A DNA stretch of 64,000 nt, from NCBI GenBank assembly GCA_004143945.1, contig SEHB01000002.1, positions 611,300 to 675,299 on the forward strand, written 5' to 3'. Shown piece by piece: positions 47,791-62,316 of the stretch (the stretch's first letter is position 1; every line of letters begins with the position of its first letter). The notes beneath the pieces were generated by a model that saw nothing but the letters and a program-made list of their open reading frames with translations, had not been told where the DNA came from and did no database searches. The position numbers and the translations under genes were made by a program. The DNA comes from Lysobacteraceae bacterium. GTDB lineage: Bacteria > Pseudomonadota > Gammaproteobacteria > Xanthomonadales > Rhodanobacteraceae.

Positions 47791-49884
47791 TCAGTCGACT
47801 GCCGCCTCGAACCCGTTCGTGAAGATCCCGTCGCCCAGCGTCACCCGCAACCGGAACACGCCTTCCTCGCTGCCCGCGCCGATCAGGAACGTGCTGCCAC
47901 CCGCGTCATGCACGGCGAGTCGGTTGCCATGCGCGAGACTCGTGCCGAAGTAGTCGGACATCGCGAGCGTCGTTCCGGTGACGCCATCGACGACCAGGAT
48001 GCGTCCGCCCGTGGCGACGGCGAGGTGATGGATGTCGGTGCCGAGCGGCGTCACGGCCGTCACGGGATCCTCGAGCGCGAACGCGCGCAGCAGGGTGCGG
48101 CTCGCTGCGTCATAGAAGCGCAGGTCCGCGCCGTAGAACACGACGATCTCGCGGTCGTTCTCGCCGTGCTCGAGCAGCGAGGCGCCGGCCGCGGGGGTCG
48201 TGAGCACCCATTCGGGCAGGTGCGTGTTCGCATTGAATGCGCGCAGCGACTCGGCGAGCACCGCGACAACGAGCGGGTCGGGTCCGCTATCGAACTGGCC
48301 AGCGATCGCGTGGCGGCAGCCTTCGAATCCTCCCATTCCGGCCGATTCCCACTGCGGCGCGCCAGTCTGCGCATCCACGATCATCAGGCGCGGGCCCTGG
48401 CCTGAATTGAGGCATGCGACGAGCGAGCGCGAACCTTCGAGCTGGACCTCCTTCACGTCGACGACCTTGCGGTCCTCGAACGACGGGATCGTGGTGTGGT
48501 CACGCGCCCACTGGATCGCGTGCGTCGCGCCATCGAGCGACACCACATGCGCGCCACGGAAGTCGGAGTTCCCCGCGAGCACCAGCCGCGAAGCTGGCGT
48601 GCCTTCGTCGAGGATCAGTGTTGCGCTGGGCTGCATCTCGAATGCGTCGTCCATGCCCGGTCCGGGCGGGGACTCCCATTGCTCGGTACCACTGAACATC
48701 GCGATCTGCGTCCAGGCGCCGCCCGTATGATTGGCGGTAGCGCTCGCACCGAACACCAGGCTCGGAGCGGCCGCGCCGAGGCGCCCCAGCGCGACCGCGG
48801 AGTAGGCACCGGGCTTGTCATTGAGGAGCTCGAGCACTGTCGAACCCGTGGTGCCGTCGACGGCGCGGAACAGCCTGTGATCGGACCAGAACACCTGCTG
48901 CGGACTGAAAGCGACCAGCGGGCTTCCGAGTGCGCCGTCGGGCCTCCATGGCGTGATCGAGGACATCGGGCCCTCGTCGGCAGGGACCACGAGGCGCGCG
49001 CTGCGCGATTGCGTATCGAACACGATCGCGGAGGACGATTCGCCGATCAGGAGTTCGTCGATGCCGTCGCCCTCGATGTCCGCGGCGCCGAGCGCATACG
49101 CGGTGAGTCCAAGCGCGTCCCACAGCGGGGACCACGGTGCGCTCCGGAAGAGCGCGAAGCGGTTGCTGTCTGCCCCGACGAACTGAGCGCCGCCTCCGGG
49201 CTGGAATTGGCCATCCACGAAGCGATAACCGAACCCGTCCTTGTAGGACCAGTCGACGGCCTGGGTCGCGCCGTCGAGTACCAGACCACCCTGCTCATAG
49301 GCGGTGACGATGATCTCGAGCGCGGGATCACCGTCCATCTGCGCAAGCAGGATCTCGTTCGCCTCGACCTGTGCGAGTTGCCACGCCAGCGCGCCCGTCG
49401 CGAGGTCGTGCGCACGCAGGCCATCGAAGAACGGCGAGGTCACCAGCTCGAGGTCGCCGTCGGCGTCGATGTCTCCGACCGCGGCCCCGCCTAGCGGCGC
49501 TTCGCCGAGGTTGATCGAGTGCGTCTCGGCGAGGGGCCATCCCGAGTACTGCCGCACCGTGCCGTCGAACCCCACGCCGACCAGGCTCGGCGCGCCCGGT
49601 GGCGGCGTCAGCAGCAGGCGTTCGAACAACCACGGCACGAACAAGGCCTGCTTGACGACCAGTGCACCGTTCTCGCGGCCGAACACCTGCAGCACGCCCG
49701 CTCCGGCCACGACGATATCTTCGAACCCGTCGCCGTCGAAATCCGCGACCAGGAGGCCAGCGTCTCCATACAAGTCGAATCCCGGCACGTCGCGCCCGAG
49801 TTCACCGAGTTCGAGCCCGCCCGCATGCGCGAGCGATCCGCACGCGACGAGGCTCGCGGCCAGCACATGGCATGTGATCTTCAT
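47791..49884 (-). CDS. Secreted FG-GAP/VCBS-type protein, tandem paralogue 2, IFTNGFE tag
   Basis: 697 residues, exactly the length of paralogue 1. Signal peptide (VLAASLVACGSLAHAGG), then ADFDGDGFEDIVV, GDIDADGDLELVT and ADIEGDGIDELL loops; the SYKDGFG and PGGGAQFV segments match the paralogues in order. LVACG is a possible but imperfect lipobox; signal peptidase I cleavage after LAHA fits better. It ends IFTNGFEAAVD. The ATG at 49884 has AAGGAA upstream. Only 64 bases separate it from paralogue 3, so those two are likely co-transcribed. Confidence 0.82.
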   Translation of the reverse strand: MKITCHVLAASLVACGSLAHAGGLELGELGRDVPGFDLYGDAGLLVADFDGDGFEDIVVAGAGVLQVFGRENGALVVKQALFVPWLFERLLLTPPPGAPSLVGVGFDGTVRQYSGWPLAETHSINLGEAPLGGAAVGDIDADGDLELVTSPFFDGLRAHDLATGALAWQLAQVEANEILLAQMDGDPALEIIVTAYEQGGLVLDGATQAVDWSYKDGFGYRFVDGQFQPGGGAQFVGADSNRFALFRSAPWSPLWDALGLTAYALGAADIEGDGIDELLIGESSSAIVFDTQSRSARLVVPADEGPMSSITPWRPDGALGSPLVAFSPQQVFWSDHRLFRAVDGTTGSTVLELLNDKPGAYSAVALGRLGAAAPSLVFGASATANHTGGAWTQIAMFSGTEQWESPPGPGMDDAFEMQPSATLILDEGTPASRLVLAGNSDFRGAHVVSLDGATHAIQWARDHTTIPSFEDRKVVDVKEVQLEGSRSLVACLNSGQGPRLMIVDAQTGAPQWESAGMGGFEGCRHAIAGQFDSGPDPLVVAVLAESLRAFNANTHLPEWVLTTPAAGASLLEHGENDREIVVFYGADLRFYDAASRTLLRAFALEDPVTAVTPLGTDIHHLAVATGGRILVVDGVTGTTLAMSDYFGTSLAHGNRLAVHDAGGSTFLIGAGSEEGVFRLRVTLGDGIFTNGFEAAVD

Positions 49885-49948
49885 CCGAGCGTTCCTTGTC
49901 GAAACCAACGTGCCGCATGAAGCGCGCGCGTCCGCGCGCGCCGCCGTG

Positions 49949-52063
49949 TCAATCCGCAATCAACTCGAACCCGTCGTCGAATATCCGCTCGTCCAGCGCG
50001 AGCCGATAACGGAACACGCCGTTCGCGCTGCCCGCGGCGACGAGGTACGTGCTGCTGCCGACCTTCTGGATCGCGAGCTCGTTGCCCTGCGCGAGCCCGT
50101 ATCCGAGGTAGTCGGAGGTCTGCAGCACGCTGCCATTCGTGCCATCGACGAGCAGCAGGTGCCCGCCCGCGGCGACCAGCAGGTGGTGGACATCGCCATC
50201 GACTTCGGACAACGCCGTCACCGGCATCCCGAGGTCGAACTGGCGCAGCAAGGTCCGGCTGGCTGCGTGGTAGAAGCGCAGCTGCGAACCCTGGAACACC
50301 ACGAGTTCGTGCCCGTCGACGCCGCCTTCGATCAGCGAAGCACCGTCGGATTCGACCGTGAAAATCCATTCGAGCAGGTGCGTGCTCGCATTGAACGCGC
50401 GGATCGATTCCGGGAACACCGCCGCGACGAGCGGATCGCCGCCGTCCTCGAAGGGTCCGGCCAGCACGTCGAGGCAACCCAGCGAATTGAATGACATCAC
50501 CACCGACTCCCACAGCGGCGCGCCCGTGTGCGCATCCATCATGAACAGCCGCGATCCATTCGTCAGGTCGTGGCAGGACACCAGCGCGAGCGAACCACCA
50601 TGGTGCACTTCCTTCACGTCCACGAGGTCACGGTATTCGAGCGCGGGCCAATCGGTGTAGTCCAGGGACCAACGCACCGCGCGCGTTGCCGCATCCAGCG
50701 ACACATAACGCACGGCATAACCCCATGCCTCGCCCGCGAGGAGCAACTGTGGCGAGGGACCGGCGGCGTCGACGATGCGCGTGACACGCGGCCTCATCGC
50801 GAACGGATGCGCCGGATCCGTCGGCGTCGGCGACTGCCAGCGCTCGGCACCCGACTCGGCGTCGAGTTGCACCCACGGACCCACGGCAGGGCCCTGCTCG
50901 AGCAGCGCATGCGCCGCGAACACGATCGATGGCATCGTGCCCCCGACAGGGCCGATCGCGAGCTGGTGGTACGGTCCGGGCCGACGGTTCGGCACTTCCC
51001 AGATCGGCGCGCCATTCATGCGGTCGTACAGGCCGACCAGCGCTTCGTCGGGGTGGTAGGCCGCCTGCGGGCTGAACACGATGTCGCCCATGCCGTCGCC
51101 GTCCGCATCCCAGTCGTCGAGTGCGTTCATGCCGGATGTCGCGCGCGGGATCGTGAACCGCACCGACTGCGTCGCGCTGTCGTAGACATGCACGTCGCCC
51201 CATTGCCCGTCGCCTGCGATGATCTCGTCGATGCCGTCGCCATCGAGGTCGACCGCATGGATCGCCGCGATATCACCGAGCTCGGCCTCCCACAGCGCCT
51301 GCCACGGCGCGGACTGGAACACCGTGAAGCGGAACCAGCTCGCCGCCACGAACTGCGCGCCGCCGCCAGGCTGGAAATGACCCGGCGCGAGGTAGGCGCC
51401 GAACTCCGCCGGCCACGACCAGTCGACCGCCTGTGTCGCGCCATCGATGACCACGCCCGGGGCCGACGCGGCGACGATCTCGAGCGCCGCATCGGCATCG
51501 AGCTGCGCGAGCATCAGGTCTTCCGCATGCACGTTCTCCAGTTCCCAGCGCAGCACGCCGGTGGCCAGCACGTGCGCGGACAGGCGCGCGGTGGCTGCGT
51601 CGGACACCACCAGCTCGAGTTGGCCGTCGTCGTCGATGTCGCCGATCGCGGCGGACCGCAGGTCCTGCGCGCCAAGATCGAGCACCTGCACCTCGGCCAG
51701 CGGCCAGCCCGCGAAGCGGCGCACGACGCCTGTGCCCGATATCGTCACGAGCTCCGGACCGCCGACACCTTCGAGCGCGAATATGCGAGTGAAGCGCGCA
51801 TCGGGCACCAGTACTGCCTGCTTCGCGAGGATTCCACCCGCATCCATGCCATACACCTGGAACAACGCGGTGACGTAACGCGAAGGCACGACGAGGTCAT
51901 CGCGACCGTCTCCATCGAAATCCGCGATCGCGTACCCGCCATCGCCAGGCTGTTCGAAGCCCGACACGAGCCGGCCGAGTTCGGAAAGCGTCGGTGTGCC
52001 TGCGGATGCAAGCGGAGTGAACGCGAGCGCGAGTGCCGCGAGCAGAGGATGAAAGGCGGGCAT
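49949..52063 (-). CDS. Secreted FG-GAP/VCBS-type protein, tandem paralogue 3, IFDDGFE tag
   Basis: 704 residues with a signal peptide (LLAALALAFTPLASAG). It shares with paralogues 1 and 2 GTPTLSELGRLVSGFE at the mature start, ADFDGDGRDDLVV, GDIDDDGQLELVV, VDLDGDGIDEIIA and WDADGDGMGDIVF loops, and the C-terminal block ending YRLALDERIFDDGFELIAD. It is the first gene of the array in transcription order. No strong ribosome binding site is seen before the ATG at 52063, but a signal peptide follows immediately. The function is unknown. Confidence 0.82.
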   Translation of the reverse strand: MPAFHPLLAALALAFTPLASAGTPTLSELGRLVSGFEQPGDGGYAIADFDGDGRDDLVVPSRYVTALFQVYGMDAGGILAKQAVLVPDARFTRIFALEGVGGPELVTISGTGVVRRFAGWPLAEVQVLDLGAQDLRSAAIGDIDDDGQLELVVSDAATARLSAHVLATGVLRWELENVHAEDLMLAQLDADAALEIVAASAPGVVIDGATQAVDWSWPAEFGAYLAPGHFQPGGGAQFVAASWFRFTVFQSAPWQALWEAELGDIAAIHAVDLDGDGIDEIIAGDGQWGDVHVYDSATQSVRFTIPRATSGMNALDDWDADGDGMGDIVFSPQAAYHPDEALVGLYDRMNGAPIWEVPNRRPGPYHQLAIGPVGGTMPSIVFAAHALLEQGPAVGPWVQLDAESGAERWQSPTPTDPAHPFAMRPRVTRIVDAAGPSPQLLLAGEAWGYAVRYVSLDAATRAVRWSLDYTDWPALEYRDLVDVKEVHHGGSLALVSCHDLTNGSRLFMMDAHTGAPLWESVVMSFNSLGCLDVLAGPFEDGGDPLVAAVFPESIRAFNASTHLLEWIFTVESDGASLIEGGVDGHELVVFQGSQLRFYHAASRTLLRQFDLGMPVTALSEVDGDVHHLLVAAGGHLLLVDGTNGSVLQTSDYLGYGLAQGNELAIQKVGSSTYLVAAGSANGVFRYRLALDERIFDDGFELIAD

Positions 52064-52251
52064 GGCGCGGAGTCCACGGGAGAAGTTCCCGAATGATAGC
52101 GCGCGGGGACGCATCGACGACGCCCGCGACAGCCACGATCGCCGAAGCCAATCACTTGCTGCAGATCCGCAACGGCACGGGCGAAACGTCGCGGGACGTA
52201 CGGGACAAAGATTAATGGATACTTGCGGAAAGCATGTCACTCAAACGAGAT

Positions 52252-52267
52252 GTAGGAATTTTCCTAC
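52252..52267. promoter_or_regulatory. GTAGGAA-TT-TTCCTAC inverted repeat, candidate operator
   Basis: Seven-base arms around TT, nearly the same as the core of the 22-bp palindrome at 47678-47699. It is in the 344-base spacer between divergent paralogue 3 and the YodC-like gene, 189 bases before the former. The remainder of the spacer shows no gene. A lone half-site (GTGTAGGAAA) appears at about 52851. Confidence 0.45.
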
Positions 52268-52407
52268 GCGATTATGCGTATTGCACCTACACAGCGCCAA
52301 GTCGATCTGCGGCATCTTCGAGTGGTCCAGACCTAGCGGGCCTGCGAGCAAGTTCAGGCTCCAAGCGTCACTCGGAACCAACACATTCGCAATGGAGAGG
52401 AGACGCA

Positions 52408-52587
52408 ATGAAGAAGGGAGATTTCGTCGGGGGAATTGAGGTAAGACCGGTAGGCGGCGGGCAAGTGATGATTCTCGGTGGCGACCCCGAAAACTGGGTC
52501 TGCACATGGGAGAGCAACGGGACAGTCCTCACACAATCATTCCAACCCGAGCAGCTGGAGCGTGTGTTATCGCCAGATCGAGCGTAA
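52408..52587 (+). CDS. Small DUF2158/YodC-like protein
   Basis: 59 residues: MKKGDFVGGIEVRPVGGGQV then VMILGGDPENWVCTWESNG and a Phe-x-x-Glu-x-Leu end (SFQPEQLERVL). The small SH3-like DUF2158/YodC proteins have this GD-V ... GG ... C-W pattern; the match is by eye and moderate. GGAGAGGAG lies about five bases before the ATG. It marks the left side of the accessory island; base composition here is less GC-biased than to the left. Function unknown. Confidence 0.65.
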   Translation: MKKGDFVGGIEVRPVGGGQVMILGGDPENWVCTWESNGTVLTQSFQPEQLERVLSPDRA

Positions 52588-53363
52588 GCGTGATCGCAGG
52601 ATCTGCAGCACGCGCAGTAGAATGTCCAGAAGGCCCGCGTACGTCATCGGCGGAGAACACTGTCGAACGTCTGCACTAGCACGAGATGAGACTGCGGTGC
52701 GTTCGCATTACGAGAAGTTGCCCGGCGTCGCTGGTGGCCTAATGGCCGGCATCCTTCCGCGTGAGTGGAGGGGCGCGTAGTCGCTGACAGCGGGCAGGAA
52801 TAGTTTCGCCCACAGTAGGACTTCGCGAAGCGGGAGAATCCTGCGTCCCGGTGTAGGAAAAAGCCGATCTTCCGCTGAGAGTCGCCTGTCCGTCGAAACC
52901 AAAATGGATTGGCCAGGCGTGTACGTCGATGGTCGCGATCGGCAGCGCTGCAACAAGACCAGAGCCCCGCCCGCGGAGCACCTGTCGATTCGAAAGAGGG
53001 CAGTTGAAGTGCTCTTGTCACGAGGAATGTAACTGCGAGAATTTTCCCCGCTGCAAGCCGCCAGTCAGCTGACAGCTGTCGCCACAGCGACTGAACACTT
53101 TCGCCAGCGAAACTGACACGCTCTCCCTCGAAGCTCTCCTGCGTTCACCCGGATTTCGCCCGGGACGGCAGGAGCTTCGACGCTCCTCCCTGCACCCTCC
53201 ATCCGGCAAAGGGGCTTAGCCCCTTGTGCAATCCCGGCCCGTCCTCCCGCCTCTCGGAATCGGATCAGAGGCAGAGAGGAAGAAAATCCTTCTGCTTGGT
53301 GCAGAGTGGTGCGTTTTTCTGCACACTTGCGCCTTGCCTACTTTCCCGGACACCACTTCGCTT
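52588..53363. other. 776-bp region without a supported gene
   Basis: Short frames exist on both strands, but none has a ribosome binding site with plausible protein sequence. Features visible are a GTGTAGGAAA half-site (about 52851), a hairpin CAAAGGGGCTTAGCCCCTTG near 53205-53224, and an inverted repeat close to the next gene. The GC content is noticeably lower than in the rest of the window. It may contain an island boundary or a decayed gene. Confidence 0.5.
53299..53324. promoter_or_regulatory. GTGCAGA / TCTGCAC inverted repeat, candidate RHH operator
   Basis: Seven-base perfect arms separated by 12 bases, ending 39 bases before the RHH-like gene. Such a site would suit autoregulation by that protein. 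Inference only. Confidence 0.3.
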
Positions 53364-53555
53364 ATGGCCTGTTTGAAACCGCCCAAGCGTTTCACGATCT
53401 CCCTCGATGCAGGGGATCATGAGGCACTGCGCAAGCTCGGCGAATCGCAGCGTCCGCCGCTGCCCCTGCAGTACGTTGTGCGCCTGGCCGTCCGGTGCTT
53501 TCTCGACCAGCCGGAAGCAACGCTGCTCCGGCCCGCCGGAGACGAGTCCCGGTGA
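53364..53555 (+). CDS. Putative ribbon-helix-helix (CopG-like) regulator
   Basis: 63 residues with the short RHH plan: strand KRFTISLD, helix AGDHEALRKLGES, helix LPLQYVVRLAVRCFLDQ. RHH proteins are DNA-binding dimers that often repress their own operon. The TGA overlaps the GTG start of the DNA methylase (GTGA), so the two are translationally coupled, and a control role over this restriction-type operon is likely. The frame stays open upstream to 53226, but the ATG at 53364 fits the fold. No family name is certain. Confidence 0.65.
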   Translation: MACLKPPKRFTISLDAGDHEALRKLGESQRPPLPLQYVVRLAVRCFLDQPEATLLRPAGDESR

Positions 53556-55828
53556 AGCGCGCAGCTGCAGACATTCGCAATGACAGTTCGGCCAGGTCTT
53601 CTCGCTGGGAAGCCTCGGTGCTCGATCCGACCCCGCAGCTCGCGTTCGCCCATCCGGACGGCGAGTCAGTCGTTTGCCTCGAACCCGGACCCGGCCCACG
53701 CGCCATCGAGGACGACGAATTCCAATTCGAGGCACTGAGCGACATCGCGGAAGTCGAGAGCTGGCGCAAAGAGATCAACCGCCCGACCACCCATATCCAT
53801 AAATGGTGGGCGCAGCGTCTGGGCACTGTGTTCCGAGCGCTGACCATCGGCGCGTTCGCTCCCTCCGGCGCGAACGTGTTCGATCTGTTCTACAAGCCTG
53901 TGCGCATTCCCAGCGGCACGGTCTTCGATCCCTTCATGGGCAGCGGCACGACATTGGCGGAGACCGTCAAGCTCGGCGCGAAGGCCATCGGTCGCGACAT
54001 CAATCCGGTCGCGCACTTTCTCGTGAAGTGCGCGCTCTCGGTCCATGACCGCAAGGCCATCCTCGAGACCTTTCGCGCCATTGAGAGCGACGTGGCCGAC
54101 GATGTTCGCAGCTACTACCGCGCCACCCTGCCGGACGGCACGCAGGCCGACGTTCTCTATATCTTCTGGGTCAAGACCGTAGATTGTCCGTCCTGCGCGG
54201 CGTCCGTGGATCTGTTCGGATCACAGATCTTCGCCCGTCACGCCTACCCGAAGAAGGTGCCGCAGGCACAAGCCGTCTGCCCGCATTGTGGCGGGATCAA
54301 CGCGGTTCACGTCGAAGACCGCGAGGCGAAGTGTTCCTCCTGCCGGAAGTCGTTCGATCCGGGCGCGGGTCCGGCGAAGGGGCAGGGCGCGACCTGTCCT
54401 TCGTGCGATCACAACTTTCCGATTGCCAAAACGATCCGGGCAAGCGGCAATCCGCCCGCGCACCGGATGTACGCGAAGCTCGTCCTGCTGCCGGACGGCA
54501 GCAAGTCGTACCACCCAATCACCGATGAAGACCGCGCGCTCTACGCAAAGGCCGAACGCGCGCTCGCCAAGCGCGAGAACGCGTATCCCGTCGTCGCCAT
54601 CGAACCCGGCTACAACACCAGTCAGGCTTTGGGGTACAACTACCGCCACTGGCACGAGATGTTCAATGCGCGCCAGCTTCTCTGCCTCTCCATCTTGGCC
54701 GAGCGCATCCGCGGCATTCCAGATCCGGTTCTGCGCGATCTCTTCACGTGTCTCTTCTCCGGCGCGCTGGAGTTCAACAACATGTTCGCCTCCTACAAGG
54801 GCGAAGGAACCGGCGCGGTGCGGCACATGTTCGCGCATCACATCCTGAAACCCGAACGCGTGCCTTTGGAGGCCAATCTCTGGGGGACGCCCAAGAGTTC
54901 GGGATCGTTCTCCACCATGTTCGAGGGCCGCATCCGCCGCGCGCTTGAGTACGCCGACGATCCGTTTGAGCTGCGCATCGCTGGCAAAGGCAGCAAGACA
55001 GAGAAGGTGTTCGGCCTCAGTGAAAGGATTGGCGCGCCCGTCGCGGAGACATATCGCGCCTTTGCCAACGGCAAGCGCGTCTATCTCTCCTGCGGGGATT
55101 CGGGATCGACCGACCTGCCGGACGGCAGTGTCGATGCGGTGATTACCGATCCGCCGTTCTTCGACAACGTGCACTACTCGCAGCTCGCCGACTTCTTTCA
55201 TGTCTGGCAGCGGCACATATTGGGTGCGGGTGGGTACAGGGAGCCGGATACGACGCGCTCGGACCGCGAAGTGCAGAACGCCGATGAAGGCGGGTTCACC
55301 GAACGGCTCGCTGCCGTGTTGCGCGAGTCGCACCGCGTCCTGAAAGAGGACGGGCTTCTCGCGTTCACCTATCACCATTCGCGGCTCGAAGGCTGGCGCT
55401 GCGTGTTGCAGGCATTGATGGAGGCCGGGTTCGGGATCAGCACCGTGCATCCGATCAAGGCCGAAATGTCGGTCGCGATGCCCAAGCTCCAAGCCAAGGA
55501 GCCGATAGACCTCGACATCATCCTCGTGTGCCGCAAGCGTTCATGCATGAAGACGCACCGCTGGAACGGCGATCTCTGGGGAACCGTCGCGCCGCCTGCG
55601 CAGGCGCAGGCCGAGCGGCTGCGCGCATCGGGCAGAAGGCTGAGCCGCAACGACGTGCGGATCATCGTGATGGCGCAGCTCCTGCGGCAGATCTCACGCT
55701 CGCCGACGATGGAGTCCGCGCTGCATCTTGTCGATACGGCGAACGGCGAGACGGAAATGCTGATCGACCGCATCCATGCGGCGGGCGGCGAAAGCAAAAG
55801 CAACGAACGCGCAACGGAGCGGACCTGA
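53552..55828 (+). CDS. Zn-ribbon-containing adenine/cytosine DNA methylase (COG1743-like)
   Basis: 758 residues. SAM motif I is D126-PFMGSGTT; catalytic motif IV is TDPPFFDNVHYS (D533), so the domain order is motif I first. Between them lie four Cys-x2-Cys pairs (CPSC from 212, then CPHC, CSSC, CPSC) forming Zn ribbons, and a helical spacer. The amino-methyltransferase fold methylates N6-adenine or N4-cytosine. The N-terminal RKEINRPTTHIHKWWAQR is the typical start of this family, which is often in defence loci. GTG start overlaps the RHH gene. The nuclease gene follows after two bases. Confidence 0.85.
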   Translation: MKRAAADIRNDSSARSSRWEASVLDPTPQLAFAHPDGESVVCLEPGPGPRAIEDDEFQFEALSDIAEVESWRKEINRPTTHIHKWWAQRLGTVFRALTIGAFAPSGANVFDLFYKPVRIPSGTVFDPFMGSGTTLAETVKLGAKAIGRDINPVAHFLVKCALSVHDRKAILETFRAIESDVADDVRSYYRATLPDGTQADVLYIFWVKTVDCPSCAASVDLFGSQIFARHAYPKKVPQAQAVCPHCGGINAVHVEDREAKCSSCRKSFDPGAGPAKGQGATCPSCDHNFPIAKTIRASGNPPAHRMYAKLVLLPDGSKSYHPITDEDRALYAKAERALAKRENAYPVVAIEPGYNTSQALGYNYRHWHEMFNARQLLCLSILAERIRGIPDPVLRDLFTCLFSGALEFNNMFASYKGEGTGAVRHMFAHHILKPERVPLEANLWGTPKSSGSFSTMFEGRIRRALEYADDPFELRIAGKGSKTEKVFGLSERIGAPVAETYRAFANGKRVYLSCGDSGSTDLPDGSVDAVITDPPFFDNVHYSQLADFFHVWQRHILGAGGYREPDTTRSDREVQNADEGGFTERLAAVLRESHRVLKEDGLLAFTYHHSRLEGWRCVLQALMEAGFGISTVHPIKAEMSVAMPKLQAKEPIDLDIILVCRKRSCMKTHRWNGDLWGTVAPPAQAQAERLRASGRRLSRNDVRIIVMAQLLRQISRSPTMESALHLVDTANGETEMLIDRIHAAGGESKSNERATERT

Positions 55829-55830
55829 TC

Positions 55831-56631
55831 GTGTCGAATGCCTCATCCCTGTTCAAAGAATGCGTGCAGGCCATCCAGCGCGGCGAGTTGATCGAGCGCG
55901 AGGGCCGCAGCGACAAGGAGTTTCATTTCCAGAACTGGTTCAAGCGGCGGCTGGAAGCGGCCGGACTGAACTTCGACTCGCCGGGCCGCAACTCCTACCC
56001 GGATTTCCGCCTCGTGCGTTTCGCCGAAGGCTTCGAGCTGAAAGGTCTTGCGTATCCGGGCCGTAAGGTCGACTACGACTGCAATTCTCAGGTCCCCTGC
56101 GGCGAGCATAACGGGCGACAGGTTTACTACGTGTTCGGACGTTATCCCGTGAACCCGGACGGCAACCGCTATCCCGTCCTCGATCTGGTTCTGTGCCACG
56201 GCAGCTTCCTCAACGCCGACAACACCTACGTCCACAAGAACAAGAGCTTCCGGGGTTTCGGCAGCTACGGCGACATCCTCGTGCGCGACCGCAAGATGTA
56301 TGTCGCGCCGACGCCGTTCGCGCTGGCCGACGGCACCGCGCACCGGCGCACGCTCATCGTTCCCGAAGGTCACGCCGTCGATGCCAACCTTGTTGAAGTC
56401 GGCACGCTCACGCGACGCGAAGTGGATCAGGTCGTCGTGGCTTACAGCTTCGATTTTCGGACCAACGAGATCGTCACCACCAACGTCGCCAATCCGAGCG
56501 CGGGCCGCGAGCATGTCTTCAAAGCCTACCGCGTCGTGGGCGATCCGGCGGACGCGGTGACATTGCGCGCCGGCAGGCGCGTGCTGGCCGAGTTGAGTGT
56601 GGCGGAAGCGGACGACGAGGAAAATGAGTAG
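55831..56631 (+). CDS. PD-(D/E)XK-type restriction endonuclease candidate
   Basis: 266 residues; family not recognised, but the active-site pattern is clear: P57-D58 in SYPDFRLV, then ten residues, then E69-L-K71 in GFELKG, as in PD-(D/E)XK nucleases. Next to a DNA methylase with a two-base gap, it is most simply the cognate restriction enzyme. An N-terminal helical segment (about 1-40) precedes the core. The GTG start at 55831 follows the methylase stop; the frame is open upstream in overlap but without family need. Mutational or biochemical proof is lacking. Confidence 0.72.
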   Translation: MSNASSLFKECVQAIQRGELIEREGRSDKEFHFQNWFKRRLEAAGLNFDSPGRNSYPDFRLVRFAEGFELKGLAYPGRKVDYDCNSQVPCGEHNGRQVYYVFGRYPVNPDGNRYPVLDLVLCHGSFLNADNTYVHKNKSFRGFGSYGDILVRDRKMYVAPTPFALADGTAHRRTLIVPEGHAVDANLVEVGTLTRREVDQVVVAYSFDFRTNEIVTTNVANPSAGREHVFKAYRVVGDPADAVTLRAGRRVLAELSVAEADDEENE

Positions 56632-56745
56632 CGGAACATCCGTTTGCTCACGCGATGGGGGCATGAACGCTCTTGCCAGACCATCGCGCGTTTTCTATAA
56701 CAGTGGTTATGCAAGTGTAAGAAGAACGAATCAGGCGAGGCGAAC

Positions 56746-59337
56746 GTGACGGTCCTCGAGGAGATTCTCCAGTGGTCGCAAGACCGCCCCGCGTGGCAGC
56801 GCGAGGCGCTGCGCCGCCTCGTGCTCAACGGAGACCTCGCCGACGAAGACATCAACGCCCTGGCCGAAATCTGCAAGAGCGGCCACGGTCTTGCAGAACA
56901 GTGCGACACCGTGCCGCTTGCGAAAGAGCATGTACCGAACCAGGCAACGGGCGCACCCGTATCGCTGGTTTCGATCTTCCATCATCGCGGCGTGAATGCG
57001 CTGGCAGAGGATCAGACTCTCAAATTCGGTCCCGGTCTTACCCTCGTCTACGGCGACAACGGCGCGGGAAAGACGGGCTACATTCGTATTCTCAAAAGCG
57101 CCTGCCGGGCGCGCGGCCCGGAGAAAATCCTGGGCAACGTGGTTTCCGGCACGACACCGCTCGCCCCTGTCGTCGCCATCAAATACAAAGTCGGCGCGGA
57201 ACCGGATCCGCGCGAGTGGGCGGGCGCTAACGAGGACGAATTCGTTTCGCGTGTGAGCGTCTTCGATACGCAATGCGCCGCCGTCTATCTCACTGAGAAG
57301 ACCGACGTTGCATTCCGGCCGTTCGGCCTGGACCTGTTCGACAAGCTCGTAAAAGCGTGCAAGGCCGTTCGCGCGAAGCTGGAATCCGAACAGCGCGCGC
57401 TTGGGATGAACGCGGTGGCTGCCGTGCAGGCAACGATTCCCGAAGGCACCGCCGTAGCGAAGTTTCTGGCGAATGTCAGTTCGCTGACCAAGCCCGAGGC
57501 AGTGCAGGCGCTCGCGCAGCTTTCTCCAGAGGAAGAGGCACGCCTCGCGCTTCTGGAAAAATCCCTGCTGGACTTGCAAGCCAACGATCCCGAGAAGCTG
57601 ATCCGGCAGCTCACCGTGCGCGCCGGACGCGTTCAGGCATTGGTTCGTCATTTGAAGGAGGTCGACGCGGCCCTATCCGATGACGCCTTGAAAGCGGTGT
57701 TCGATGCGCGGACGGAGGGACGGCGCAAAAGCGAGGAAGCCAAGCGCTTGCGCGAGGCCACGTTCCCGCAAGGGCGCCTGCCGGGAACGGGGACCGATGC
57801 GTGGACGGTGCTCTGGGAGTCGGCGCGGCGTTTCTCGCTGGAGCAGGCGTATCCGGGCAAGACGTTTCCGGTCGTCGGAGACGGCGCGCAATGCGTTCTC
57901 TGTCAGCAGGACCTCGATCACGCAGCCGCCCACAGGCTCAAGCAGTTCGAGGACTTTGTGGCCTCGACCGTCGAACGCGAACTCCGCCAGATCAGAGATA
58001 CGTTCACCCGGCAGAGAAGAGCGTTTGCCGATCTCAAGACGACAACCGAGGCGGTTGACGAAACGCTCAAGGAAGTTCGCATCGAGCACGAAGCCGTGGC
58101 CGACGCCATCAGCGCGGCGCTTGCATCCAACGAGAAACGCCGGGCCGCCGTATTATCGGCCCTCACGGAAGACAAGGACCTGGTCGGCGACTGCCCGGCC
58201 CTCGTGTCCGTCACCTCCGGAGCCGAGGGGCTGTCGGCGCAGATCGAGGAACGCATCAAGACGCTGCGCACCAGCGCGAACGACCAGACACACAAGAGCA
58301 TGACCGACGAGGCCCAGGAGCTGCGCGCCCGGAAGTTACTTGCCGCGAATCAGCAGACGGTTCTCGATGACATCGAGCGCCGGAAGAAATACGCCGCCTA
58401 CGGCCTGTGCATCGACGATACGAAGGCGCAGGCGATCACGGCCAAGAGCACAGCCGTCACCAAGACGGTTGTCTCTCAGAAGCTCAAGAAAAGCTTTCAG
58501 GACGAGCTGGTCAATCTTTCCTTCCGCCATGTCGAAGTCGAGCTGAAAGAGCTTGGCGGCGCGGATGGCGTCTTCTATCACAAGCTCGTTCTCACGCGCG
58601 CGGCCGGCGTCGAACTGCCGAAGGTCGTGAGCGAGGGCGAACAACGATGCCTTTCCATCGCCGCGTTCTTCGCCGAACTCAGCACCGCCGACGATCCCTC
58701 CGGCATCGTGTTCGACGACCCCGTGTCCTCTCTGGATTTTCAGTGGCGCAACGGCGTGGCGCGGCGGCTAGTGCAGGAGTCAAAGACGCGGCAGGTCATC
58801 GTCTTCACGCACGATGTCGTGTTCCTGCTCTCGCTCCGGCAATACGCCGAGGAGCTGGGCGTCGAACCGCTCGACCAGCATGTTCGCCACCAGTCCAAGG
58901 GCGCGGGCGTATGCGCGGAAGAGCTGCCTTGGGTGGCGCTGCCCGTGAAGAAGAAAATCGGATACCTCAATAATTGCTGGCAAGCCGCCGACAAGCTTTC
59001 CCGCGACGGGCATCAGGACGCCTACGAGAAAGAGGCCAAGTATCTTTACGGGCTGCTCCGTGAAGCGTGGGAGCGCGCGCTCGAAGAGGTGCTTCTTGGC
59101 GGTGTGGTCGAACGCTACAGGCCCGGGGTCCAAACGCAGCAGATTGCCCAGATCGCCGACATCACCGCAGACGACTGCAAAGCCGTCGAGATAGCCATGA
59201 CGAAGTGCTCTACATGGCTGCCGGGCCATGACAAAGCCGCCGCAGCCCGCGCGCCGGTGCCTACGCCGGCGGAACTCAAGGCCGATATCGAAGCGCTGGG
59301 AAGCTGGGTCACGGCGATTCGCAAGCGGCGGAGCTAG
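56746..59337 (+). CDS. RloC/PrrC-like AAA family ATPase (AAA_13) with CxxC hook
   Basis: 863 residues. Walker A is G103-DNGAGKT; the ABC signature is SEGEQR near 629; Walker B and D-loop are GIVFDDPVSSLD near 653; a switch His is in VIVFTHDVVFL. Between the halves are long helical coils with C383-VLC386, a zinc-hook-like turn. The layout is that of RloC/PrrC/Rad50-like SMC ATPases. The C-terminal LLREAWERALEEVLLGG is typical of the AAA_13 family; a nuclease centre there is not certain. PrrC-type proteins guard restriction systems and are released when those fail. GTG start at 56746, 114 bases after the nuclease. Confidence 0.82.
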   Translation: MTVLEEILQWSQDRPAWQREALRRLVLNGDLADEDINALAEICKSGHGLAEQCDTVPLAKEHVPNQATGAPVSLVSIFHHRGVNALAEDQTLKFGPGLTLVYGDNGAGKTGYIRILKSACRARGPEKILGNVVSGTTPLAPVVAIKYKVGAEPDPREWAGANEDEFVSRVSVFDTQCAAVYLTEKTDVAFRPFGLDLFDKLVKACKAVRAKLESEQRALGMNAVAAVQATIPEGTAVAKFLANVSSLTKPEAVQALAQLSPEEEARLALLEKSLLDLQANDPEKLIRQLTVRAGRVQALVRHLKEVDAALSDDALKAVFDARTEGRRKSEEAKRLREATFPQGRLPGTGTDAWTVLWESARRFSLEQAYPGKTFPVVGDGAQCVLCQQDLDHAAAHRLKQFEDFVASTVERELRQIRDTFTRQRRAFADLKTTTEAVDETLKEVRIEHEAVADAISAALASNEKRRAAVLSALTEDKDLVGDCPALVSVTSGAEGLSAQIEERIKTLRTSANDQTHKSMTDEAQELRARKLLAANQQTVLDDIERRKKYAAYGLCIDDTKAQAITAKSTAVTKTVVSQKLKKSFQDELVNLSFRHVEVELKELGGADGVFYHKLVLTRAAGVELPKVVSEGEQRCLSIAAFFAELSTADDPSGIVFDDPVSSLDFQWRNGVARRLVQESKTRQVIVFTHDVVFLLSLRQYAEELGVEPLDQHVRHQSKGAGVCAEELPWVALPVKKKIGYLNNCWQAADKLSRDGHQDAYEKEAKYLYGLLREAWERALEEVLLGGVVERYRPGVQTQQIAQIADITADDCKAVEIAMTKCSTWLPGHDKAAAARAPVPTPAELKADIEALGSWVTAIRKRRS

Positions 59338-59344
59338 GAATGAC

Positions 59345-59869
59345 GTGAGCGCGATCCCTTGGCTAGAAAAACACGCCCCCGGATTCTCCGGCCTGAGCGC
59401 TACGGAGCGCGGTCTCCTCACGGACTTCGCCTTGCTTTGGAGTCTGTTCGAAGGGGAAGTCGTGAACTCGGCAGCAAGCGTGAACACCATCGAAGAGGCT
59501 GTTCGGCGATGGGATCAAGCGGGCTTGCTGTCGCCGCAGACATTCGCGGCGGCTGCCGGCTATTTTAGGCAGCGATATTACGCAGACGGCACATTCACCT
59601 ACCGTTTCGATCATCTGCATCTTGAGCGGTCCGCAAATCCCCAGGTCGTGCGGAATGTTCTGAGCGGACAGGATTCAGCACCCTTCAGTATTGCGTCGGC
59701 ATTGCTCATCATTGTGTATCGCTACCGCAACAACCTGTTTCACGGCGAGAAATGGGCGTATCAGCTTAAAGAGCAGGAGCAGAACTTTTCGTACGCCAAC
59801 GAAGTGCTTATGCACGCTATTGAATTGAACCGAAAAGTCCAGCAGGGCGCGCCGGACCGCCCGGAATAG
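59345..59869 (+). CDS. HEPN-motif protein, putative ribonuclease
   Basis: 174 residues, mostly helical. The C-terminal half holds R128-NNLFH133-G, the R-x4-H motif of HEPN ribonuclease domains, preceded by a hydrophobic helix (ASALLIIVYRY). The N-terminal part has LLTDFALLWSLFEGEVVN. Proteins with a YRNNLFHG motif are common companions of ATPase or defence genes. GTG start at 59345 follows the ATPase stop by seven bases, with AGGAATGAC in front, so it is co-transcribed. It may be the RNA-cutting partner of the ATPase; that is inference. Confidence 0.68.
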   Translation: MSAIPWLEKHAPGFSGLSATERGLLTDFALLWSLFEGEVVNSAASVNTIEEAVRRWDQAGLLSPQTFAAAAGYFRQRYYADGTFTYRFDHLHLERSANPQVVRNVLSGQDSAPFSIASALLIIVYRYRNNLFHGEKWAYQLKEQEQNFSYANEVLMHAIELNRKVQQGAPDRPE

Positions 59870-59957
59870 AGGATCAAGAGTTGTCTATCGTTCTGAACGC
59901 CTTCCCGCTGAAAGTGCCAGAATCGGAGCTGAAGCCCGCCAGTTCCCTATGACAAGG

Positions 59958-59994
59958 AAACGCTGAACGTCTTTCGTGTAATGACCCAGCGTTT
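59958..59994 (+). terminator. Weak stem after the HEPN gene, possible terminator
   Basis: AAACGCTG and CAGCGTTT pair as an 8-bp stem with a 21-base loop, followed by TCTGCT rather than a clean T run. It lies about 90 bases after the HEPN gene and just before the IS remnant. Confidence 0.3.
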
Positions 59995-60004
59995 TCTGCT
60001 CAGG

Positions 60005-60250
60005 TCAGGCTGCTAATTTCCCGGCCGCGACACGATACGCCTCGTCCGGGGTCTGCATGCCGAGCGCCTGATGCGGGCGCCGGCTGTTGTAGAGCTGGAT
60101 CCAGTCGCCGATCACGCGCATCGCGTGCTGCTGGCTTTCGAAGCGGTGGCGGTGCACGTACTGCTCCTGCAGCGTCCGTATCACGCGCTCGACCAAGCCG
60201 TTCTGCTGCGGGCGGTGCGGCGTGATGAACTCCTGGCTCACGCCGCGTAT
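60005..60250 (-). pseudogene. IS3-family transposase (OrfB) C-terminal remnant
   Basis: About 80 residues: EFITPHRPQQNGLVERVIRT, HRHRFESQQHAMRVIGDWI and YNSRRPHQALGMQTP are the conserved end of the DDE integrase domain of IS3-family elements, including the terminal catalytic Glu (in LVERV). The upstream catalytic Asp residues and the whole OrfA are missing; sequence beyond 60250 does not continue the family. The frame may run on upstream for a few residues. No terminal inverted repeats can be assigned. It is a decayed fragment between the defence operon and hipBA. Confidence 0.85.
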
Positions 60251-60323
60251 GAACGCGCTTACATGTCAGCGTTTGATTACATGAGATAAATGTAACCGAG
60301 CGCAGACATCTGGTGATGCCCCG

Positions 60324-60352
60324 TTGTCAGCTATCGAACACATTGCTAGAAT
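60324..60352 (+). promoter_or_regulatory. Strong candidate promoter of hipBA with direct-repeat operator
   Basis: TTGTCA (60324-60329), a 17-base spacer and TAGAAT (60347-60352) make a near-consensus sigma70 promoter 31 bases before the hipB start. ATCGAAC occurs twice, at 60333-60339 inside the spacer and at 60356-60362 after the -10, where HipB could bind and repress. Confidence 0.6.
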
Positions 60353-60382
60353 GTCATCGAACGGCGACTCCGGAGGAAGCCA

Positions 60383-61030
60383 GTGCCGATCATCCAGACC
60401 GCAAAGGAACTTGGGGTCGCGATCCGCTCGCGCCGCAAGGAGCTGGGGTGGGATCAGGCCACGCTTGCAAAGCAGGTAGGGGTGACCCGGCAATGGGTCA
60501 TCGATATCGAAAAAGGCAAGCCGCGCGCGGAACTTGCCTTGGCGCTGCGTGCGCTGCGTGTGCTCGGCTTGTCATTGAACGTGGACGCGAAGCCGGAGGG
60601 AAGCACCGAGCCAGGCAACGAAACCGGAGGGCGCCACACAAGCGGAGCGACTCCGAGCCTGGACATCAATGCCATCGTCGAGAGACATCGTCTAGGTGGC
60701 GCGAGTCATTCCGCCGCGTCTCTCGGCGTGATGCCTGACTACAGGAAGCACCTGAAGGCGGCAGGGAGACTCGAACATCTGGCCAATTCCGAAGCGGCCA
60801 GGTCTGTTGCTGACATCCTTGGTGACTCAGCGGCGAGGCAACTGTCGGGCATGCTGAATCCGAAGTTGCCGAAGACGGCAGCCGACTACCTGAAGGAAAT
60901 GGGCGCGGCAGCGCGTTTGGATTCCTTGCCAAACCTCGATGCAATCAGGCGAAGTATCGATCCTCTCAGCGAAGCCATTTCAGCCAGCCGGCTAGACGAT
61001 CCCGCATTTCCGGGGTCGAGGAAGCGATGA
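60383..61030 (+). CDS. hipB: HipB-type Xre regulator with long C-terminal extension (antitoxin)
   Basis: 215 residues. The helix-turn-helix covers about 4-60 (LGVAIRSRRKELGWDQATLA ... GVTRQWVIDIEKGKPRAEL). HipB antitoxins are usually about 90 residues; here roughly 140 more residues follow, with no family I recognise (Ala-rich helices, ending PAFPGSRKR). It binds its operon and neutralises HipA. GGAGGA lies five to six bases before the GTG at 60383. The stop overlaps the hipA ATG (ATGA). Confidence 0.82.
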   Translation: MPIIQTAKELGVAIRSRRKELGWDQATLAKQVGVTRQWVIDIEKGKPRAELALALRALRVLGLSLNVDAKPEGSTEPGNETGGRHTSGATPSLDINAIVERHRLGGASHSAASLGVMPDYRKHLKAAGRLEHLANSEAARSVADILGDSAARQLSGMLNPKLPKTAADYLKEMGAAARLDSLPNLDAIRRSIDPLSEAISASRLDDPAFPGSRKR

Positions 61031-62316
61031 CGGAGCTGTTCGTCCTGATCAACGGGAGCATGGCCGGCAGAGTCTATGCCGACAGGCGTGGCCGACTTAA
61101 ATTCACGTACGACGACGACTGGCGAAACAGTCGCGATGCGATCCCGCTGTCCCTCAGCCTGCCGTTGGCGACCCAACACCATGAGTCCGAGTCGGTTGCA
61201 GCGGTGCTGTGGGGCTTCCTTCCGGACAACGAGCATATCCTCCAGCGCTGGGCTGGCCAGTTCCATGTATCGCCACGCAATCCGCTGGCGCTGCTGGGCC
61301 ATGTCGGCGAGGATTGTGCTGGTGCCGCGCAATTCGTTCGAGTGGATCGGGTGGACGCAATTCTCGACGGCGGACCGGGTGCGGTGGATTGGCTGGACGA
61401 GGCCACGGTAGCGGAGCGGTTGCGTCAGGTACGCGGCGACGCCAGTGCGACGCGACGTCAGGACGACATCGGGCAGTTCAGCCTTCCGGGTGCCCAGCCC
61501 AAGATTGCATTGCACTGGGACAACCGAAGATGGGGCATTCCGCAGGGCCGCACGCCGACGACTCACATCTTCAAGCCGCCCACCGGCGTCTACGAAGGCT
61601 ACGTCGAGAACGAGCACTTCTGCCTGATGCTGGCGCGCAGGCTGGGGTTGTCGGTATGCGAATCCACGATCCTGCACTTCGAGGACGAAATCACGATTTG
61701 CGTAAGGCGCTATGACCGCCAATACCAAGCGGGGTGTTGGTGGCGCGTCCATCAGGAGGATTTTTGCCAGGCGCTGGGCTTGATGCCGCAGCGGAAATAC
61801 CAGAACGAGGGCGGTCCGTCGCCGGCGCAGATCGGCGACGTGTTGCAGCAATATTCGACACAGCCGCAGACCGATCGGGAAAACTTCCTGCTCGTGCTTG
61901 TCTACAACTGGCTGATCGGAGGCTCCGACGCCCACGCCAAGAACTACTCCCTGCTGCTCGGCACGGGAGGTGGCGTACGGCTGGCGCCGTTCTACGATAT
62001 TTCAAGCGCCTTGCCGTATCCGCAGATCGACCGAAGAAAGCTCAAGATGGCAATGAAGGTCGGAAGCCACTACCGCTGGCACGACATCAGTTTGCGGGAC
62101 TGGCTGGCATTGGGCAACGACCTGGGTTTTTCCGAGGAGTACATCAGGGAAGTCCTGGGGCTGGTCGGCAACGCGATCGCCAACCTTGCAGCGACGGTCG
62201 CAGACGAGATGAGGCAGGAGGGGATCCGCCACACGGTCCTCGACACGCTGGTCACTGCGATTACCGGCTCCGCCGAGCGGTGTCTGAAGATGCTGAGCGC
62301 GTCGTCGGTTGACTGA
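61027..62316 (+). CDS. hipA: HipA-type Ser/Thr kinase toxin
   Basis: 429 residues, the family length. The N-terminal HipA_N region contains LPLSLSLPLATQ; GAQPK (about 156) is the phosphate-binding loop; catalytic Asp301 is in GGSDAHAKNYSLLL; metal-binding Asp is in APFYDISS. HipA phosphorylates glutamyl-tRNA synthetase (or another synthetase in relatives), causing a reversible growth arrest. It overlaps hipB by four bases. All kinase motifs are intact, so it is predicted active. Confidence 0.92.
   Translation: MTELFVLINGSMAGRVYADRRGRLKFTYDDDWRNSRDAIPLSLSLPLATQHHESESVAAVLWGFLPDNEHILQRWAGQFHVSPRNPLALLGHVGEDCAGAAQFVRVDRVDAILDGGPGAVDWLDEATVAERLRQVRGDASATRRQDDIGQFSLPGAQPKIALHWDNRRWGIPQGRTPTTHIFKPPTGVYEGYVENEHFCLMLARRLGLSVCESTILHFEDEITICVRRYDRQYQAGCWWRVHQEDFCQALGLMPQRKYQNEGGPSPAQIGDVLQQYSTQPQTDRENFLLVLVYNWLIGGSDAHAKNYSLLLGTGGGVRLAPFYDISSALPYPQIDRRKLKMAMKVGSHYRWHDISLRDWLALGNDLGFSEEYIREVLGLVGNAIANLAATVADEMRQEGIRHTVLDTLVTAITGSAERCLKMLSASSVD

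What the first reader, a model, noticed from the sequence alone, without database searches (positions are those of the whole stretch)
53364..59869. Five-gene putative defence operon: RHH regulator, Zn-ribbon methylase, PD-ExK nuclease, RloC/PrrC-like ATPase, HEPN protein
Seen: tight same-strand spacing (4-base overlap, 2, 114 and 7 bases), intact SAM motifs (D126-PFMGSGTT, TDPPFF), a PD-x10-ELK nuclease centre, an SMC/ABC-type ATPase with CxxC hook, and R-NNLFH HEPN motif. Known: methylase plus PD-ExK nuclease is a restriction-modification arrangement; PrrC and RloC act as guards of restriction systems, and HEPN domains are common RNases in abortive defence. Inference: this is a composite system in which the ATPase and HEPN protein sense failure or phage attack and cut RNA. 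I do not recall a named system with exactly these five parts.
Basis: partly seen in the sequence, partly recalled or inferred. Interest (0 to 1): 0.88.

Follow-up and report, generated by a model that had tools for sequence, protein, structure and literature searches.

The report
Restriction pair beside RloC-HEPN guard pair
Two gene pairs sit side by side in this bacterium: a DNA methylase with a predicted DNA-cutting partner, and an RloC-type ATPase with a small predicted RNA-cutting partner; they likely form a first and a self-sacrificing second line of phage defence, but the ATPase was not found beside 80 genome relatives of the first pair, so this looks like two modules combined rather than one fixed five-part system.

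Summary
(1) MT+PDK: the methylase lies next to the nuclease in 77 of 80 genome loci and 4 of 4 plasmids; the nuclease has no Pfam, NCBIfam or PADLOC match and folds (pLDDT 87) most like SwaI, EcoRV and HincII. This looks like an unnamed, widespread, type II-like restriction-modification pair. A small RHH-like gene precedes it in some close relatives, with tandem TGGTGC repeats upstream. (2) ATP+HEPN: the ATPase has the defining sequence features of RloC (ABC head, CxxC hook, R-x3-E-x51-H; invariant in 30 rows) and is followed by a protein with a HEPN motif; the pair recurs, overlapping by 4 bases, on a Pannonibacter plasmid. The ATPase was found beside 0 of the 80 genome loci, but beside the pair on an Acidiphilium plasmid; 7 of 39 ATPase loci have restriction or BREX genes nearby. 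Some MT+PDK pairs carry other partners (GmrSD+HEPN, OLD-like ATPase). Best reading: a restriction core plus an exchangeable suicide guard. No activity was tested. Restriction plus an anticodon-nuclease guard is a known kind (PrrC-EcoprrI).

The parts
53297..53312 (+). tandem repeat TGGTGC-N4-TGGTGC, possible operator of the RHH protein
   Evidence: Five of the six distinct sites in 2.58 Mb of held sequence lie upstream of this RHH gene or its relatives; in the window alone one such site (1 mismatch allowed) is not surprising; binding is inferred
53364..53555 (+). 63-aa RHH-like small protein, likely autoregulator
   Evidence: homologues upstream of the methylase in 7 of 32 methylase-first loci with 300 bases or more upstream; no family hit, RHH by eye only
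53552..55828 (+). Zn-ribbon N6/N4 DNA methylase (COG1743/DUF1156-like)
   Evidence: PF01555 E 8.5e-14; partial PADLOC MTase_II, HmaB, PglX and DUF1156 hits; motif conservation and four CxxC, two of them conserved
55831..56631 (+). predicted PD-(D/E)XK restriction endonuclease, no library family
56746..59337 (+). RloC-type ATPase with CxxC hook and C-terminal R772/E776/H828 triad
   Evidence: PADLOC PDC-S06 E 6e-232, AAA_13; invariant residues in 30 rows; SMC/Rad50 head fold
59345..59869 (+). small protein with HEPN-type R-x4-H motif, predicted RNase
   Evidence: R128 and H133 invariant in 32 rows; a homologue follows a homologous ATPase on a Pannonibacter plasmid with 4-base overlap; no family hit

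Best explanation
The locus is two gene pairs side by side: a methylase and a predicted restriction nuclease that likely work as a type II-like restriction-modification system, and an RloC-type ATPase with a predicted HEPN RNase that would likely serve as its second-line, tRNA- or RNA-cutting guard. Step 1 (inferred): the methylase marks a site in host DNA, the nuclease cuts unmarked phage DNA at or near that site, and the RHH protein binds the TGGTGC repeats and limits expression of its own operon. Step 2 (inferred): if infection goes on, the RloC ATPase, which in studied RloC proteins is switched on by linear or broken DNA, senses DNA ends, some made by the nuclease itself, hydrolyses ATP and lets its C-terminal triad cut tRNA anticodon loops; the HEPN protein would be released or recruited to cut further RNA, stopping translation and phage growth. 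Shown here: gene presence, conservation, predicted nuclease fold, neighbourhoods. Not shown: any activity, target or coupling.
For: Methylase adjacent to the nuclease in 77/80 genome loci and 4/4 plasmids. No other family of frames of 80 aa or more is shared by more than 6 of the 80 loci, so the pair mostly stands alone. Nuclease active site and fold. RloC sequence definition met: R-x3-E-x51-H (published range x36-52), CxxC hook, 863 aa (published 658-897). Break-induced activation of RloC is published (abstract and passages of PMC3874168). The ATPase-HEPN pair recurs on a Pannonibacter plasmid with hook and triad kept; 5 of the 40 best HEPN homologues share an identical longest-contig length with a close ATPase homologue against 0.13 expected (indirect). 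ATPase relatives lie near restriction or BREX genes in 7 of 39 loci, including one MT+PDK pair.
Against: ATPase not found at the 80 MT+PDK loci. A 114-base gap separates the two pairs, so co-transcription is unproven; the crude scan found no sigma-70 promoter anywhere in 53150-60100. HEPN gene not found at 38 other ATPase loci or at L102; on plasmids it is beside this ATPase family in 1 of the 7 HEPN regions read. 7 of 39 has no matched background, and the RloC paper itself counted 8 of 72 at type I or III loci, so enrichment is not shown. Published RloC is rarely linked to restriction systems and did not need one. The C-terminal ATPase domain and the HEPN protein have no confirmed fold. No Foldseek match of the nuclease reaches E 0.001 (best 0.12), and unrelated adaptin chains are mixed in.
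Confidence: 0.6

Rival explanations
1. Two unrelated defence gene sets that merely share a defence hotspot, with no functional coupling: a restriction pair and an RloC+HEPN abortive module.
For: 0 of 80 MT+PDK loci have the ATPase; in 32 of 39 ATPase loci I saw no restriction or BREX gene as a same-strand neighbour among those examined; lower GC and no copy of the nuclease in 15 other genomes of the genus point to acquired DNA.
Against: Acidiphilium carries nuclease, methylase, small gene and RloC ATPase in a row; some other MT+PDK pairs carry other ATPase or HEPN partners next to them.
Confidence: 0.3
2. The HEPN protein is the toxin and the ATPase its sensor-antitoxin, as AriA-AriB in PARIS; the ATPase triad is only structural. 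(This can be true of module 2 whether or not module 1 is coupled, so it overlaps the readings above.)
For: Overlapping ATPase-HEPN genes on Pannonibacter; the best sequence match in the PDB is AriA, E 1.9e-7 over the ATPase core, with Rad50 next.
Against: R772, E776 and H828 are invariant in 30 rows, 20 of which are loci where no HEPN gene was found; few other C-terminal columns are conserved.
Confidence: 0.2
3. One integrated five-part system.
For: Tight same-strand spacing of all five genes.
Against: Gene neighbourhoods: 0 of 80; MT+PDK without ATPase under many phylum names.
Confidence: 0.07
4. MT+PDK is modification-dependent (type IV-like) or the methylase does not protect against this nuclease.
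For: None direct; site specificity is unknown.
Against: Near-constant pairing with a methylase whose motifs are conserved; realigned fold closest to site-specific type II enzymes.
Confidence: 0.08

Closest known systems
RloC anticodon nuclease (Davidov & Kaufmann 2008, PMC2610378, passages seen)
   Same: ABC ATPase head, CxxC hook in a coiled coil, C-terminal R-x3-E-xn-H triad, size
   Different: here next to a type II-like pair and followed by a second, HEPN-motif protein; activity untested
PrrC-EcoprrI guard of a type I restriction system (passages of PMC2610378, PMC3710099, PMC3874168)
   Same: ABC-ATPase protein with the same triad, encoded beside a restriction-modification system
   Different: PrrC is shorter, lacks the hook insert and sits with hsd genes; here the neighbours are MT+PDK
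Type II restriction-modification with EcoRV/SwaI/HincII-like nuclease
   Same: methylase-nuclease pair; predicted PD-(D/E)XK fold
   Different: no sequence family in the libraries searched; the 758-aa methylase with four CxxC resembles DUF1156/BREX-related enzymes
Hma / Type-1 BREX-related systems (methylase + DUF499 ATPase + SNF2 helicase-nuclease; passages of PMC12839542 and PMC7641849)
   Same: related Zn-ribbon methylase
   Different: none of the five genes is a DUF499 ATPase or helicase; the nuclease is a separate 266-aa protein

Membership tests
RloC | C-terminal Arg-x3-Glu-x36-52-His triad | tested here: met
   R772-x3-E776-x51-H828, invariant in 30 rows
RloC | ABC ATPase split by coiled coil with CxxC zinc hook | tested here: met
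RloC | length 658-897 aa | tested here: met
   863 aa
RloC | HEPN fold of the C-terminal domain | tested here: inconclusive
   helical in the model but residues 790-802 are under pLDDT 50 and no listed match covers it
RloC | wobble-nucleotide-excising tRNase activity | not testable with these tools
   needs an assay
PrrC | 341-416 aa, no zinc-hook insert, linked to type Ic hsd genes | tested here: not met
   863 aa, CxxC present; none of the five genes is an hsd gene; definition
Type II restriction-modification | separate methylase and nuclease genes, adjacent | tested here: met
   77/80 loci and 4/4 plasmids
Type II restriction-modification | nuclease with PD-(D/E)XK fold and active site | tested here: met
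   conserved residues and predicted fold; Foldseek alone weak
Type II restriction-modification | both enzymes recognise the same site | not testable with these tools
   needs methylome and digests
Hma / BREX-related (BR) | DUF499 ATPase and SNF2 helicase beside the methylase | tested here: not met
   none of the five genes matches such a family; no third family reaches more than 6 of 80 loci
HEPN RNase | R-x4-6-H motif | tested here: met
   R128-NNLF-H133, R and H invariant in 32 rows; motif from passages of PMC3710099
HEPN RNase | HEPN fold / profile match | tested here: inconclusive
   no Pfam HEPN or PDB profile match; not folded

The most novel reading that the evidence does not exclude
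MT+PDK is a new, widespread restriction core with an interchangeable suicide-guard slot: different lineages plug in RloC+HEPN, GmrSD+HEPN, or OLD-like ATPases, and the guard reads the DNA ends that the core's own nuclease makes, so that restriction itself arms translation shutdown.
Probability: 0.27. Interest if true: 0.75.

Novelty: new variant of a known kind. Interest (0 to 1): 0.5.

Why it matters
A restriction core found under record titles from Acidobacteria to Streptomyces but without a nuclease model in the libraries searched would add a common system to genome annotation. Its swappable ATPase/HEPN partners would let one test directly whether DNA breaks made by restriction trigger RloC-type tRNA cleavage, a link that the RloC papers seen here leave open.

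Tried and rejected
Viral contigs: no relative of the nuclease (alignment query) or, with one sequence as query, of the ATPase; 11 HEPN relatives, not examined further. VIA-align rows for the ATPase list no HEPN protein, which proves nothing for residues 738-863. Profile searches of the PDB with the HEPN and nuclease alignments gave no usable match. The longest-contig test for nuclease-ATPase co-occurrence (5402 and 12614 shared, 0.68 expected, reached in 15% of trials) is no better than chance; only the 12614 case has matching sources and organism wording. Nuclease-HEPN: 1 shared, 1.2 expected. L070's AAA_13 ATPase does not match at the triad or hook columns, so it is not counted as RloC. The AAA ATPase two genes after a HEPN gene on an R. 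etli plasmid is not of this ATPase family (blastp E 0.014 over 72 residues, weak profile match). No 11- or 12-base repeats are shared by 52240-53400 and 59800-60420. No promoter by the crude scan. Searching other genomes with flanking DNA gave no clean empty site. Papers: the listings of searches and the passages I opened of six papers show no description of the MT+PDK pair or of an RloC gene followed by a HEPN gene; the searches are word-based, cover open papers only, and I opened no paper in full.

Full report
WHAT IS THERE. Five open + strand frames lie at the stated places with the stated spacing. I call them RHH, MT, PDK, ATP and HEPN. GC is 0.57-0.66 in the genes against 0.69 in the flanking chromosome. 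Own genome included, PDK is found in 1 of 16 genomes of the genus and 1 of 398 of the phylum sample at E 1e-15, ATP in 18 of 398 at E 1e-30, HEPN in 5 of 398 at E 1e-8. The cluster is therefore sporadic and likely acquired.

MODULE 1, MT+PDK. An alignment of PDK homologues scanned against one genome per species gave 181 relatives, of which the best 80 loci were kept; record titles name Proteobacteria, Acidobacteria, Planctomycetes, Chloroflexi, Verrucomicrobia, Bacteroidales, a cyanobacterium, Streptomyces and others. MT lies next to PDK in 77 of 80 (misses L035, L069 and L079; in L069 the locus ends just after PDK; in L018 the two are divergent). All 4 plasmid hits among 72,556 records have MT too. 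Both gene orders occur; the closer relatives mostly have MT first, the more distant ones PDK first. ATP and HEPN are found in 0 of the 80 by tblastn at E 1e-5; by profile over the called frames HEPN in none, ATP only weakly in L070. Loci hold up to 10 kb on each side; of 76 parsed, 58 hold at least 3 kb downstream and 63 upstream, so a distant or cut-off ATPase could be missed. Apart from MT and PDK no family of frames of 80 aa or more reaches more than 6 of 80 loci. 4191 homologues of PDK, clustered at 90%, pass E 0.001, yet PDK has no match in PADLOC, Pfam or NCBIfam, nor do 68 family members in PADLOC, nor 5 distant members in NCBIfam.

MT. PF01555; the best PADLOC hits are partial: MTase_II, HmaB, PglX, DUF1156. 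Motif I D126-P-F-x-G-S-G-x-T and motif IV T532-D-P-P-x-F are kept in at least 95% of 73 sequences; the window protein has four CxxC, at 212, 243, 261 and 282, of which the second and third are kept in at least 95%. The order motif I, insert, motif IV and the DPPF motif suggest N6-adenine methylation; that is recalled, not tested. Several distant plasmid homologues at about 30% are annotated DUF1156 proteins. Passages of PMC12839542 and PMC7641849 describe related methylases with DUF499 ATPases and SNF2 helicases; neither partner is among these five genes.

RHH AND REPEATS. RHH-like genes sit upstream of MT in 7 of 32 methylase-first loci with at least 300 bases upstream (L002, L004, L005, L007, L008, L012, L015). 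TGGTGC-N4-TGGTGC occurs at 53297-53312 and upstream of the RHH genes of L002, L005, L007 and L008; in 2.58 Mb of held sequence, where 0.3 would be expected for uniform bases, there is only one other distinct site, in L054 (L171 repeats the window). L004, L012 and L015 lack the exact pattern. With one mismatch allowed the window alone would give 0.36 by chance, so it is the conservation that counts.

MODULE 2, ATP+HEPN. ATP matches PADLOC candidate PDC-S06 over its whole length (E 6e-232). In 30 rows at 23-93% identity the invariant columns include K109, C383, C386, S629, G631-E632, D657-D658, H689 and, in the C-terminal domain, R772, E776 and H828 (same in 22 rows). The RloC paper describes the family by Arg-x3-Glu-x36-52-His, a CxxC hook and 658-897 aa, and reports that replacing any triad residue abolished activity (passages of PMC2610378). 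ATP meets all three. The HEPN survey counts the RloC and PrrC nuclease domains as HEPN (passages of PMC3710099). So the ATPase likely is a nuclease itself, and the small HEPN protein a second one. HEPN has R128 and H133 invariant in 32 rows but no HEPN profile or PDB match.

IS ATP-HEPN A REAL PAIR? On a Pannonibacter plasmid ATP (34% identical; hook and triad kept) and HEPN (48%) overlap by 4 bases. Among the 40 best HEPN homologues 5 share an identical longest-contig length with a close ATP homologue, expected 0.13; over all 120 it is 6 against 0.43 (indirect). Against: HEPN was not found at 38 other ATP loci or at L102, and the 6 other HEPN plasmid regions read show other neighbours, one of them an unrelated ABC-type ATPase two genes on. 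In one genome locus, L132, a HEPN relative (29%) lies among genes that read by eye as a type I restriction locus.

GUARD CONTEXT. Of 39 ATP loci examined, 7 have restriction or BREX-type genes as same-strand neighbours: L102 Acidiphilium, PDK-MT-74-aa gene-ATP; L103, brxL with two genes between; L112 and L154 type I; L119 ResIII with N6_N4 methylase; L113 SNF2 helicase, OLD-like ATPase and DUF1156; L153 a methylase 390 bases after an ATPase split in two frames. I ran Pfam on 20 chosen neighbours only, and part of the neighbour listing was cut from view, so this is a lower bound; there is no matched background, and the RloC paper counted 8 of 72 at type I or III loci. Of 85 PDK loci (80 genomes, 4 plasmids, window) at least 11 have an ATPase- or HEPN-type partner next to the pair: GmrSD_N plus HEPN in L018, L019, L024, L065, L078 (Pfam on L019; the rest by similarity cluster) and L134 (by annotation); OLD-like AAA_15 in L008 and L133; AAA_13 in L070; RloC in L102 and the window. 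Not counted: a CBASS-type synthase (L054), a C5 methylase with a GHKL ATPase (L027), a patatin (L005), an AAA_16 protein (L043). Pfam was run on neighbours of 26 loci; many of those neighbours are housekeeping genes (tRNA synthetase, MnmE, BipA, AFOR, FtsX), which again says that the pair can stand alone.

MECHANISM. Restriction first; RloC, in published work activated by linear DNA or break inducers even without a restriction system (abstract and passages of PMC3874168), second. That PDK's cuts arm ATP, and that HEPN adds to it, is inference.

Noticed in passing
window 60383-62316 (+): HipB-like XRE regulator and HipA-like kinase frames directly downstream of the cluster, by eye.
   Followed up: no
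window 60005-60241 (-): 78-aa frame that reads like the C-terminal remnant of an integrase-type transposase, by eye; a possible trace of how the cluster arrived.
   Followed up: no
window 47791-52240 (-): Two long FG-GAP/VCBS-like repeat proteins in tandem, by eye; DNA 66-70% alike to the second lies just upstream at G000:C25:657978-660784, partly the first of the two.
   Followed up: no
L113 634-11209: RloC-family ATPase inside a SNF2 helicase + OLD-like ATPase + DUF1156 methylase gene row, perhaps guarding a BREX-related system.
   Followed up: partly
L134 (Tabrizicola piscis plasmid, 8217 bases): Small mobilisable plasmid mostly made of PDK, MT, a DUF262 protein and an annotated HEPN-like nuclease.
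   Followed up: partly
L190 1-8510: Pannonibacter ATPase-HEPN pair beside Eco57I-type methylase and 7-cyano-7-deazaguanine synthase genes on the other strand, a possible DNA-modification island.
   Followed up: no
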